Shown one piece after another: positions 48,559 through 52,362 of a DNA stretch of 64,000 nt (position 1 is the first letter of the stretch; each line of letters starts with the position of its first letter). Below the pieces are notes generated by a model. It saw only the letters and a program-made list of their open reading frames with translations, was not told the origin of the DNA and ran no database searches. Made by a program: the position numbers and the translations under genes. Source of the stretch: Bolinopsis microptera (lineage: Eukaryota > Ctenophora > Tentaculata > Lobata > Bolinopsidae); the NCBI RefSeq assembly GCF_026151205.1, contig NC_087078.1, forward strand, positions 12,631,118-12,695,117. Reading direction: 5' to 3'.

Positions 48559-51500
48559 ATGTACAGGCTTGCCAGAAAGAGAAGACTCTTATACTCAGTC
48601 GTACAAAAGTCACCGGTATGTCGTGCTACTTCATCAGGCTCTGAGGTGACGTCATCACTACAGCTTGTGACGTCATACCCACAATGTGTCACATCATGTT
48701 TCCAACATGTGAGAGGTCTACACAGTACACCTCTTTCATTGAATTTAATGGAGAGAATGGCTGGTGTCGGCTCCTTTCGTTACGACGTAATTCTTCCTGA
48801 CAACGATGCTAAACCTGAGGTAAACTAATAACTATTATTTAATATATTTAATGACATGATGTAAAATCCGGATTGTAGTATTATTTATGAGTCGCATTGT
48901 TGTAATGTATTCTGTGTAAAATTATCTTATCCCGGTTGTTGCGACAAGTAAAAATGCTCTTATTAGGGAAAGGAGATTACTCAGACATGACTTGTATTAT
49001 AAGTTAGACGGAGTAGGAATGTATTTGAGACCGAAAACGTTTTATTTAGTTATTAGTAAGAAATATATTAGGTTCTCTTCTGATTGAATTTGTACTGCTT
49101 AGATTGCTTTAAAATCTGTAACTATATAATATTATTATATATAAATATTACTCTTCCCAGACTTCGTTTAAAGATGTAGGAGGACACTACGAAGCTAAGG
49201 TGGAACTCTCAGAAATAGTTGATTTCCTGAAGAACAGAAAGAAATACACCGACCTAGGGGCTAAAATTCCCTCCGGAGCTCTTTTAAGTGGACCCCCTGG
49301 TAAGTTTTCCGTGTTTGACCAGAGGAACCATTTTTTCCTTTATTTAGCCTTACTATTTGAATACCAAACCGTCTTGAAAATAACAGCAGGTTGCGTCGTT
49401 TTTTAACAGTGTGTTTTTTCAGGAAATGGTAAGACGTTGCTGGCTCGTGCTATAGCTGGGGAGGCATCAGTTCCTTTTATCAACACGGCAGGGCCCAACT
49501 TTATTGAAAAGATCGGTGGATTGGGACCAAAACGTGTCAGAGAAATATTCAAGGTTGGTTTCCGGGGGCTGACTGAAACAAAGAATGTGTTTTATCATTC
49601 AAGAGATTTTCTGTTGATATATCAATGATTGCTTTCTGATTCTAACCGACAATTCAATCTATACCAATGAATTGTCCAGTTGTTACCCGTGGTCTGTGAT
49701 CTGTGATCTGTCCTTAAAAACTTGGCTGAGTCCAATTTTCAATCCTTGGTTGATGATTGATCAATGATCGCTGGAGCAGTATGAAATTTATAAATACAAC
49801 TTTAAATATGCCCCTCTTCTTTTAGGTATGTAAAGAACATGCCCCGTGTATCCTCTTTATTGATGAGATAGACGCTTTGGCATCAAAAAGAGGTGGCTCT
49901 GGTGGTATTGGAATGGGATCTGGACAAGAGGACAATGAGAAAACACGTACTGTTAACCAGGTTAGAATAAACACGTGCTACATATCCGTCACGTGTCTAA
50001 ATGATGGGTCCATAGATGTGACAGAATTGCTAACTATTGAACCATGGAATTTAAAAGCGTACAAATATTAGAAACCAACGTTTTTATTTATTGCAGCTTC
50101 TAGTTGAGATGGATGGCATGTACAGTAGAGATGAGATATTTGTGATAGGAGCCACTAACAGAGACGACACTCTAGATTCAGCTGTTACACGTCCTGGTAG
50201 ACTCGACAGAAAGGTAAATTGTACATACCATACATACCGTGTACTAATATTGTAAAATGTACATTATATACCACATGTACATACCATGTGTACATTGTGC
50301 TTTCTAGCTTTTTGTGTCAGTTCCTCAGGAACTGAGTTCCTGCTTCACAATTACGTTTCTGTGTTCTACAATAACACATAAAAAGTAAAAACAAGGTATA
50401 ATATACTCACTCCTGTTTTCTCAGGTGTATATTGACAACCCTACTGAGATAGAGCGCGAGGAGATATTCAAGATACACATGGCTACTGTTAAGATAGGTG
50501 ACAACTTGAAGGAGAGTTACGCAGCCAGGCTAGCAGCCTGCACTCCTGGTATGGTATTTCTCGATTCTTTAGAAAACATTTCAAGATTCAATATTTACTC
50601 CTCCAAGTATTCTGCAAAATAGAACAGTTTTATGAGACATTTTCACTCGATGCTCTCATCGTGATAGGTATTGCACGATATTCAATGTATTAAACGCTGT
50701 CCATTACAGGTAAAAGTGGCGCAGATATAGCAAACATTTGTAACGAAGCAGCGATACAGGCTGCTAGGCAAGTTAAAACGTCCGTTGAAGAGGCGGATTT
50801 TGAAGCTGCTCTGGAACGAATCACCGCAGGTTTTTAATCGTCCTATTTGTTTGTGTTAAAAAGAGACTTGATAAACAGGGAAAGCACATCCTCCCTGCCT
50901 ACTAGCCCTATCCTCCTTTATCCTCTTAACTTACCTGTATATATGGATACAAATTAAATATGTTGATACTGTGCCTTCAGCCATCCCCCTCCTCAGGATT
51001 GGAACGAAAATCGTCATCAGTTTCGGAAGAAGAGATCCAGCTCGCCGCTTATTACATTGCCGGGCAAACTTTCCTTTCCTGGGTCCTTCCTACGTTAGTA
51101 TGACTGGATTGGCAGGCAAACTTATCTTTTAATCCTCATATTGACGAAAGATTTTTTCTCTTTAAAGGTTGACTGCTTAATGATTGCCGATTGGTACCAT
51201 GTATTTATGTTCTGACATCTCAGATTGACTCCAGTTCTCAAAGCGTCCATGGTTGCCCGGGTAAATAACCCTCTCGGATTTGTCCAGTTCGCTCCTAGAA
51301 AAGAATTACTCGCAACCAAGGAGCACTTGCTGGATTTGGTGTGTCGTGGTTTGGCTGGCAAAGCTTCTCAGATGATATTTCTTGATAAACACACTACTCA
51401 AGCCCAGAGTGATTTAGAGAGGATTACTAATGTAAGTTTTTTTTATGGCCCTGAAATAAAATATCAGTCATTAATGCTAATTTGGGTAACTTTGTTTTGA

Positions 51501-52362
51501 CGTGACAACAATTAAACGAAAATCACATTTTGGACAAGTGGAACACTGTGAAAATGTATTGTTTGGAGCGCGCAGAGACAATTGTGAATTGATAAATACA
51601 CGCGCACGTACATGCATACAAACTGCGCGCATGTCAGATCATGTCCGTCCGTCAGATCGAATCATGTTAGATCATTTACGTACATATTAATTTATGTTAA
51701 CGTAAATTTTGTGCACGTTTGTCAGGTTTGTGACAACATTTTATTGTCGATTGATTATCAATCGTATAAATTATAAAACTAGCATTTTCAGAAAGCATCC
51801 ACCCACCATATTAGAACAAACATTGTTAATAACCCTATTACGCATTCTGTTGCTCAGGTGGCATACTCGATGATTGCTGATCATGGAATGGGGAAATCTG
51901 CGCCTAATCTCTCGTTTCACGAGCAGCGATCCCAACAACGAAGAGTCAATATTTGGAGCAACAAACTGCAACAAGAAATGGACGAAGAAGTTAACTCGAT
52001 TGTTCAGGTTACACCAAAAATATCATCTCTTTTCGTCTTGAACCTCTCCTTTAACTTAGCCTATATTTAATCGATTATCGTGCAACACCTATGAGACCGA
52101 ATATAGTCTATTTAATTTAATACGTCATATTCAAGTATTGAGGTGACTAGTGATAAGTGGTGAGTTGCAGCATTATCTTAAGTCTAGTTTTTAAACTAAC
52201 GTAGTGGTACCACAGGAGCAGTACGAAAGAGCGTCTCAAATCATAGAGAAGAATAAAGAGCTAATCAAGAAGCTCTCAACAGACCTTTACGAGAGAAAGT
52301 CACTAACGGAGGATGAAGTAACGGAGTTGATTGAAAAGTATGGGCCTGTGCTAGAAACGTAA
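48559..52362 (+). CDS. Mitochondrial AFG3/paraplegin-family AAA+ pseudoprotease
   Basis: Eleven exons: 48559-48819, 49161-49299, 49423-49553, 49826-49960, 50097-50213, 50425-50548, 50710-50829, 50997-51093, 51224-51431, 51858-52007, 52216-52362. All introns are GT-AG; the sum is 1,629 bases, 542 residues plus stop. Residues 1-30 are basic and look like a mitochondrial presequence. ATPase: GPPGNGKT (131-138), FIDEID (188-193), sensor N243, arginines R254 and R257. The M41 peptidase fold follows, but the position of HEAGH reads YIAGQ (362-366), losing both histidines and the glutamate; D438 is kept. Pore loop 1, normally F-V-G, reads I-G-G (164-166). The family's membrane-spanning N-terminal part is absent. 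Predicted: an ATPase or chaperone without protease activity, soluble in the matrix (inference). Family members are usually about 750-800 residues. Confidence 0.88.

What the first reader, a model, noticed from the sequence alone, without database searches (positions are those of the whole stretch)
48559..52362. AFG3/paraplegin-family gene with a dead protease site
The eleven exons join to an uninterrupted 542-residue protein. The ATPase keeps Walker A, Walker B, sensor N and both arginine fingers. At the place of the zinc-protease signature H-E-A-G-H the protein reads Y-I-A-G-Q, so both zinc histidines and the catalytic glutamate are gone, and the later R-V-A-E-E glutamate region reads K-A-S-Q-M, while the surrounding fold ([20 protein letters not shown]) is kept. 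This pattern indicates a maintained protein that no longer cleaves. Inactive FtsH-type proteins are known in plant chloroplasts (FtsHi); I know of no such mitochondrial paralogue described in early animals.
Basis: partly seen in the sequence, partly recalled or inferred. Interest (0 to 1): 0.85.

Follow-up and report, generated by a model that had tools for sequence, protein, structure and literature searches.

The report
Ctenophore paraplegin that cannot cut
A comb jelly's version of paraplegin, half of a mitochondrial protein-cutting machine, has kept its ATP-driven motor but lost its cutting site and apparently its membrane anchor, which gives a natural test of what the motor does alone.

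Summary
The eleven exons (48559-52362, introns GT-AG) give an uninterrupted 542-aa AAA+M41 protein whose HEAGH site reads YIAGQ (362-366); the next conserved Glu is Gln424. The third zinc ligand, Asp438, is kept. No contiguous HExxH codon string exists in the window.

It is best identified as paraplegin (SPG7): pore loop IGGLG, DGM and GRLDR; 12 against 3 signature columns; tree split 94/93 (AAA only). The genome's chromosome figures fit the ctenophore Bolinopsis microptera. It also holds an AFG3L2 and two YME1L-type genes, all three with HEAGH.

Constraint is uneven: 63 of 67 invariant AAA columns are kept but 8 of 17 in M41, where other members keep 17 of 17-20.

Best reading: an ATPase-competent, non-proteolytic, probably matrix-soluble paraplegin working with AFG3L2. 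An inverted, 99% identical second copy shares the dead site but has frameshifts. No cDNA and no other ctenophore could be examined.

The parts
48559..48819 (+). Exon 1 (residues 1-87): presequence-like start (8 Arg/Lys, 1 Asp/Glu in 60 aa; RGLHST at 52-57), then linker; no transmembrane segment
   Evidence: donor GT, phase 0; in-frame stop just upstream
49161..49299 (+). Exon 2: start of AAA domain (TSFKDVGG...SGPPG)
49423..49553 (+). Exon 3: rest of Walker A (NGKT) and pore loop EKIGGLG
49506..49526 (+). Pore loop 1, EKIGGLG (162-168); human paraplegin has EVIGGLG, AFG3L2 EMFVGVG
49826..49960 (+). Exon 4: Walker B LFIDEID (49853-49873) and Gly-rich insertion
50097..50213 (+). Exon 5: EMDGM, sensor TNR, arginine fingers RPGRLDR (50190-50210)
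50425..50548 (+). Exon 6: end of AAA core
50710..50829 (+). Exon 7: AAA lid ([12 protein letters not shown])
50997..51093 (+). Exon 8: start of M41 domain with the dead site
51053..51067 (+). TAC ATT GCC GGG CAA = Y362 I A G Q366 in place of HEAGH
   Evidence: same residues in the second copy
51224..51431 (+). Exon 9: M41 core incl. [25 protein letters not shown] (in 51354-51374) and kept Asp438 (51411-51413)
51858..52007 (+). Exon 10: M41
52216..52362 (+). Exon 11: C-terminus and TAA stop
45907..48190 (+). Neighbour: C2H2 zinc-finger ORFs (45907-46677, Pfam; 47681-48190, by eye), split by a stretch that has no match in the second copy; the stop at 48190 bounds the paraplegin gene on its 5' side

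Best explanation
The gene is the paraplegin (SPG7) orthologue of this ctenophore. It has become a pseudoprotease: it should still bind and hydrolyse ATP but cannot hold catalytic zinc or cut. Its encoded form has no membrane anchor: a presequence-like stretch is read straight into the linker and AAA domain, so the mature protein is most likely soluble in the mitochondrial matrix. It most likely works as an ATPase-only subunit that joins AFG3L2 rings on their matrix face. There it would help pull and unfold substrates or tune the ATPase cycle, while AFG3L2 does all the cutting. Shown here: the gene model, the dead site, paraplegin affinity, selective conservation of the AAA module, and an AFG3L2 gene with HEAGH. 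Inferred: ATP hydrolysis, matrix location, solubility, assembly with AFG3L2, and the pulling role.
For: Dead site and kept ATPase motifs. Paraplegin identity: the highest-scoring PDB chain with a single AAA domain is paraplegin 2qz4 (283.6 bits) against AFG3L2 (275.8), (chains with two AAA domains score higher in sum, up to 331.5); 12 paraplegin-like against 3 AFG3L2-like AAA columns whose residue is absent from (or gapped in) four outgroups; split {window, SPG7} 94.4/93 (AAA) and 97.5/99 (AAA+M41), and 94.8/95 (AAA) with a further i-AAA gene; AU tests. Only one intron position is shared with the AFG3L2 gene, so it is not a recent copy of it. Maintenance: 63 of 67 invariant AAA columns kept against 8 of 17 M41 columns (leave-one-out of eight other members: 67 of 67-76 and 17 of 17-20); Fisher p = 1.9e-5 for the counts 68 of 72 and 8 of 17. 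No anchor. Possible partner: AFG3L2 at C3:17638781-17643605 with HEAGH. Precedent: in mixed m-AAA rings a defective domain is complemented by the other subunit, and paraplegin does not self-assemble (PMC3192828, passages); m-AAA extracts Ccp1 from the membrane independently of proteolysis (PMC6210556, passages); the soluble parts of two bacterial FtsH proteins can form hexamers alone (PMC9020784, passages).
Against: No cDNA and no second ctenophore. The second copy has frameshifts. The N-terminal helical moment is reached by 62% of 2000 shuffles, so the presequence rests on composition and a recalled cleavage motif. Raw identity does not separate the families (window-SPG7 56.0%, window-C3 AFG3L2 54.9%). 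In all columns where AFG3L2 and SPG7 differ, M41 sides 12 to 9 with AFG3L2. The AAA-only AU test does not exclude a place beside the AFG3L2 clade (p = 0.096), and by SH test three of four alternatives survive with AAA alone and two with AAA+M41. The M41 half of human SPG7 is from memory and enters the M41 counts. FtsH_ext HMM searches fail even on the AFG3L2 N-terminus, so they do not test the anchor. The aromatic pore-loop residue that grips substrate in AFG3L2 (F381, PMC12994072 passage) is Ile here, as in human paraplegin, which weakens the pulling role.
Confidence: 0.55

Rival explanations
1. A dead but still membrane-anchored paraplegin: transmembrane exons lie further upstream and splice past the zinc-finger gene into an acceptor in or before exon 1, so only the protease is lost, as in plant FtsHi proteins.
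For: AG acceptors exist inside exon 1, e.g. ending at 48598 and 48725. The AFG3L2 locus of this genome has hydrophobic upstream reading frames (by eye). The anchor HMM is insensitive here.
Against: A zinc-finger ORF on the same strand ends at 48190, 368 bases before the ATG. tblastn of the two AFG3L2 anchor-like exons against the whole window found nothing better than E = 0.18, though these exons may be too diverged to find. Exon 1 is open from its own ATG and basic at its start.
Confidence: 0.25
2. A soluble, independent matrix unfoldase or chaperone that forms its own rings and does not join AFG3L2.
For: No anchor in the model; ATPase motifs kept; the pseudo-chamber fold is still recognised (Pfam M41).
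Against: Human paraplegin does not self-assemble (PMC3192828 passage); the paraplegin-type pore loop is kept, which fits a role beside AFG3L2.
Confidence: 0.15
3. A gene on its way out: a recently dead pseudogene in a duplicated region.
For: The inverted second copy has frameshifts in exons 9 and 11; the neighbouring zinc-finger gene is interrupted in this copy. Among the eukaryotic members the window's M41/AAA branch ratio, 1.97, is near the top (1.12-2.00).
Against: This copy is open over 1629 nt with all splice sites. 63 of 67 invariant AAA columns are kept along a long AAA branch (0.71 and 0.68 substitutions per site). Many of the copy's coding and intron indels are one-base shifts in homopolymers, which may be assembly errors.
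Confidence: 0.1
4. A lineage-specific duplicate of AFG3L2 that converged on paraplegin-like residues.
For: 13 AAA and 12 M41 columns agree with AFG3L2 against SPG7, against 18 and 9 the other way; AFG3L2-clade placement p-AU 0.096 with AAA alone.
Against: Sister to the C3 gene: p-AU 0.040 (AAA), 0.0056 (AAA+M41); AFG3L2 clade with AAA+M41: 0.023; one shared intron position only.
Confidence: 0.07

Closest known systems
Paraplegin (SPG7), m-AAA protease subunit of animals
   Same: AAA+M41 order; pore loop IGGLG, DGM, GRLDR, IDxPTxxER (2qz4); nearest in the trees
   Different: Zinc site (HESGH in the recalled human sequence) replaced by YIAGQ; no transmembrane domain in the model; shorter C-terminus (recalled)
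AFG3L2 (m-AAA)
   Same: Same architecture; probable partner; present with HEAGH on C3
   Different: FVG pore loop, DGF, GRFDR; active site intact; hydrophobic upstream frames at its locus
FtsHi1-5 of plant chloroplasts
   Same: FtsH proteins with lost HExxH and kept ATP-binding motif, important for the plant (PMC9020784, PMC11266112, passages); FtsHi5 reads WAAGR
   Different: Chloroplast envelope, of mixed ancestry; four of five bound to Ycf2-FtsH12; third ligand also changed, whereas Asp438 is kept here
alpha-MPP (M16), a mitochondrial pseudopeptidase
   Same: Metallopeptidase with changed zinc site (Table in PMC11266112, passage); its pairing with active beta-MPP is recalled
   Different: Unrelated family, no ATPase

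Membership tests
FtsH/AFG3 family (AAA + M41) | AAA ATPase domain followed by M41 domain | tested here: met
   Pfam AAA 138 bits, M41 126 bits
FtsH/AFG3 family (AAA + M41) | HExxH + Asp zinc protease site | tested here: not met
   Y362-I-A-G-Q366; only Asp438 kept. It is a non-peptidase homologue, not a protease
FtsH/AFG3 family (AAA + M41) | N-terminal transmembrane domain | tested here: inconclusive
   No segment above KD 1.32 in the 542-aa model; upstream exons not excluded by cDNA
FtsH/AFG3 family (AAA + M41) | NCBIfam TIGR01241 FtsH equivalog cut-off (600 bits) | tested here: not met
   490 bits, best of the 17 NCBIfam families listed
Paraplegin (SPG7) subfamily | Groups with SPG7, not AFG3L2 | tested here: met
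   94.4/93 (AAA), 97.5/99 (AAA+M41, M41 of SPG7 recalled); AU tests mostly reject others, AFG3L2 clade p = 0.096 with AAA alone
Paraplegin (SPG7) subfamily | IGGLG pore loop, DGM, GRLDR | tested here: met
Paraplegin (SPG7) subfamily | Mitochondrial inner membrane, assembles with AFG3L2 | not testable with these tools
   needs protein experiments
FtsHi (plastid pseudoproteases) | Plastid descent and location | not tested
   Unlikely by inference: assembly figures of an animal and paraplegin affinity

The most novel reading that the evidence does not exclude
In a ctenophore the paraplegin half of the m-AAA machine has shed both its protease and its membrane anchor and become a free matrix AAA+ subunit that powers or regulates AFG3L2 in trans. 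This would be a natural separation of motor from protease and from membrane in an animal mitochondrial FtsH.
Probability: 0.45. Interest if true: 0.68.

Novelty: new variant of a known kind. Interest (0 to 1): 0.52.

Why it matters
Whether paraplegin's own protease site and anchor are needed, or only its motor, bears on human SPG7 disease, where some ATPase-impaired variants keep function through assembly with AFG3L2 (PMC12994072, passage) and defects in one subunit's domain can be complemented by another subunit (PMC3192828, passage). A lineage that has run the opposite experiment, keeping the motor and losing the protease, would show which parts selection keeps. The maintained FtsH pseudoproteases named in the passages seen are the plastid FtsHi proteins.

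Tried and rejected
FtsH_ext HMM genome-wide at E 0.001 and E 10: 0 matches, including none on AFG3L2, so uninformative; Pfam on the AFG3L2 anchor-like exon also gave nothing. The M41 HMM over the genome found 5 exon matches but missed the second YME1L-type gene at about C13:3642779, so it is not exhaustive. I therefore classed other AAA matches by fetching 13 further loci. By eye and recalled family features, 12 of the 13 are AAA proteins without M41 (proteasome subunits, NVL-, spastin/katanin-, VPS4- and BCS1-like) and one is the YME1L-type gene; C6:7.68 Mb is CDC48-like. Not read: C2:21175545, C1:11779209, C6:13728636 and the inverted C13:3661 copy. Relatives in viral contigs: 9 pattern matches, none confirmed. 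Organism by glutamate-receptor match to PDB: no chain named as ctenophore among the 60 shown; chromosome sizes were used instead. The first tree run failed on a thread setting (of which only the column counts are used) and was repeated. Structure prediction was not run, because an exon-joined protein is not plainly the window's own letters. dN/dS between the two copies was rejected: 1 synonymous and 1 non-synonymous change before the frameshift. Idea that the changed pore loop is itself degeneration: rejected, because human paraplegin has it. Idea that the catalytic change is an assembly error: rejected (two copies agree; Glu to Ile needs three base changes).
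Full report
The observation. Exon borders were found from the sequence and joined: 261, 139, 131, 135, 117, 124, 120, 97, 208, 150 and 147 nt, all ten introns GT-AG, 542 codons and a TAA stop. A splice-aware local alignment to human AFG3L2 gave the same inner borders, except that it split the Gly-rich stretch of exon 4 and began exon 5 25 bases earlier. Pfam gives AAA, AAA lid and Peptidase_M41. In NCBIfam the best hit is FtsH (TIGR01241), 490 bits against a cut-off of 600.

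The dead site. Aligned with human and ctenophore AFG3L2, human SPG7, ctenophore YME1L, yeast YME1 and three bacterial FtsH proteins, the two zinc histidines are Tyr362 and Gln366, the catalytic glutamate is Ile363, and the next conserved glutamate is Gln424. The third ligand, Asp, is present as Asp438. Human AFG3L2 in 6nyy carries a Gln at the catalytic Glu, which I take to be a trap mutant. The pattern for HExxH codons has no match in 64 kb on either strand, though a motif split by an intron, as in the AFG3L2 gene here, would escape it.

Which organism. G000 has 264,652,675 bases in 232 contigs. Contigs 1-13 are 15.2-26.2 Mb long and contig 14 only 198 kb; the N50 worked out by hand from these lengths is 20.8 Mb. 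Table 1 of PMC11797021 (passage seen) gives Bolinopsis microptera 265 Mb, 13 chromosomes, largest 26.2 Mb, N50 20.8 Mb, GC 38.5%; this window has 38.8%. The scaffold number differs (346 there). I take the genome to be Bolinopsis microptera, a ctenophore; this is inference from assembly figures, not a sequence test.

Which gene. Against PDB chains, the AAA part matches human paraplegin 2qz4 at 283.6 bits and AFG3L2 at 275.8 bits; many two-domain AAA chains rank above both on summed scores. In columns where human and ctenophore AFG3L2 agree and SPG7 differs, the AAA domain sides with SPG7 at 18 and with AFG3L2 at 13; in M41 it is 9 against 12. Restricted to residues absent from (or gapped in) four outgroups it is 12 against 3 and 4 against 1. 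Trees put the window protein with SPG7: SH-aLRT/UFBoot 94.4/93 for AAA alone with the PDB sequence and 97.5/99 with M41, and 94.8/95 for AAA after adding a second i-AAA gene. AU tests: AAA alone, SPG7 placement 0.968, sister of the C3 gene 0.040, AFG3L2 clade 0.096 (not rejected), outside or basal to m-AAA 0.028 and 0.027; AAA+M41, 0.99 against 0.0056, 0.023, 0.018 and 0.018. The SH test is more lenient: with AAA alone it rejects only the sister of C3 (0.047; others 0.104-0.117), and with AAA+M41 it leaves the two basal placements at 0.062. The M41 half of SPG7 is from memory; the AAA half was checked against 2qz4 (260 of 261). Raw identity does not decide: 56.0% to SPG7, 54.9% to C3 AFG3L2. 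Of ten intron positions one matches the C3 gene (within one column, same phase) and one matches the C13 gene, so it is no recent copy of either.

The rest of the family in this genome. The AAA+M41 part of AFG3L2 lies at C3:17638781-17643605 (74.9% identical to human in AAA, 65.7% in M41) with HEAGH. YME1L-type genes lie at C13:3608770-3613619 and from about C13:3642779 (its C-terminal exons differ between two alignments), both with HEAGH. So 3 of 3 other M41 genes read keep the site. No other paraplegin-type gene was seen among the loci read, but three further AAA matches and one inverted copy on C13 were not read, and N stretches may hide genes.

Is it maintained? Of columns invariant in the other members compared (AFG3L2 6nyy set aside for its trap residue; recalled SPG7 included), the window protein keeps 68 of 72 in AAA and 8 of 17 in M41. 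With the second i-AAA gene added it keeps 63 of 67 and 8 of 17; each of eight other members, left out in turn, keeps 67 of 67-76 and 17 of 17-20. Fisher p = 1.9e-5 for the first count. The window's M41/AAA terminal-branch ratio is 1.97; the eight others range from 1.12 to 3.78, the five eukaryotic ones from 1.12 to 2.00. So M41 as a whole has drifted no faster than in some active members, though near the top of the eukaryotic range, while its catalytic columns went. This is the pattern of a protein kept for its motor. It is not proof of present expression.

The anchor. The model protein has no hydrophobic segment of transmembrane strength. The AFG3L2 locus on C3 has hydrophobic upstream reading frames in the expected place (by eye), although the Pfam anchor model does not recognise them. 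In the window, a C2H2 zinc-finger reading frame on the same strand ends 368 bases before the ATG. The AFG3L2 anchor-like exons find nothing in the window better than E = 0.18. Exon 1 starts with a basic stretch (8 Arg/Lys, 1 acidic residue in 60) and RGLHST, which resembles, from memory, a mitochondrial presequence cleavage motif; its helical moment is unremarkable. I therefore think the protein is soluble, at about 0.65, with missed upstream exons the main alternative.

The second copy. C7:12807867-12811657 on the minus strand is 99.1% identical over 5,033 aligned columns. The matching pieces of 390 bases or more around it, between window 40628 and 54550, are 98.7-99.7% identical, with unmatched stretches between them; further on, 56.4-60.6 kb matches at only 77-79%. 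The copy has the same YIAGQ but an extra C in exon 9 and one-base shifts in exon 11. Many of its indels are in homopolymers, so I cannot tell a decaying duplicate from an unpolished second haplotype.

How it most likely works. Human paraplegin does not self-assemble; it forms mixed rings with AFG3L2, in which a defect in one subunit's domain is covered by the other (PMC3192828, passages). m-AAA also pulls Ccp1 out of the membrane without needing its protease (PMC6210556, passages). The soluble parts of two bacterial FtsH proteins can form hexamers (PMC9020784, passages). A non-cutting, ATP-hydrolysing paraplegin beside an active AFG3L2 fits all three. Its pore loop has Ile where AFG3L2 has the substrate-gripping F381 (PMC12994072, passage), as human paraplegin does, so it may regulate more than pull. 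ATP hydrolysis, assembly, location and pulling are inferred.

Literature. Papers were seen as passages only or as search listings, most of them capped lists. The passages name FtsHi of chloroplasts as the inactive M41 members; a Babesia microti survey also counts 14 M41 paralogues that lack a recognisable protease region (PMC8621943, passage). In what these searches listed I saw no described non-proteolytic paraplegin and no study of m-AAA subunits in ctenophores; the library is open-access only, so this is weak evidence of absence.

Noticed in passing
window about 40628-54550 against G000:C7 12.80-12.82 Mb (L001, L007, L008): Inverted second copy of the region about 130 kb away, matching pieces 98.7-99.7% identical, with stretches private to one copy; either a young inverted duplication or two haplotypes joined in the assembly.
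   Followed up: partly
window 46665-47798: A stretch with minus-strand reverse-transcriptase-like reading frames (by eye) sits between two parts of a C2H2 zinc-finger gene in this copy and has no match at that place in the inverted copy.
   Followed up: partly
window 3073-5889 minus strand: 938-aa open frame with a GIY-YIG domain near its start (Pfam) followed by a reverse-transcriptase-like part (by eye; no Pfam hit); resembles, from memory, a Penelope-like element with an N-terminal GIY-YIG.
   Followed up: no
window 854-7502 plus strand: Non-LTR retroelement pieces: endonuclease and PHD-like finger at 854-2590, reverse transcriptase at 5805-7502, with the minus-strand element at 3073-5889 between them.
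   Followed up: no
G000:C13 3.608, 3.643 and 3.661 Mb (L005, L026): Two divergent YME1L-type genes with HEAGH close together; the second has an inverted AAA match at 3.661 Mb with nearly the same scores.
   Followed up: partly
G000:C3 17634175-17638573 (L006, L002): Repeated 5' segments of the AFG3L2 locus: the same reading frames occur about 2.9 kb apart; local duplication or assembly repeat.
   Followed up: no
G000, 32 places: 32 ligand-binding-domain matches of ionotropic glutamate receptors, 22 of them in single open frames of 431-989 aa, suggesting largely intronless receptor genes.
   Followed up: no
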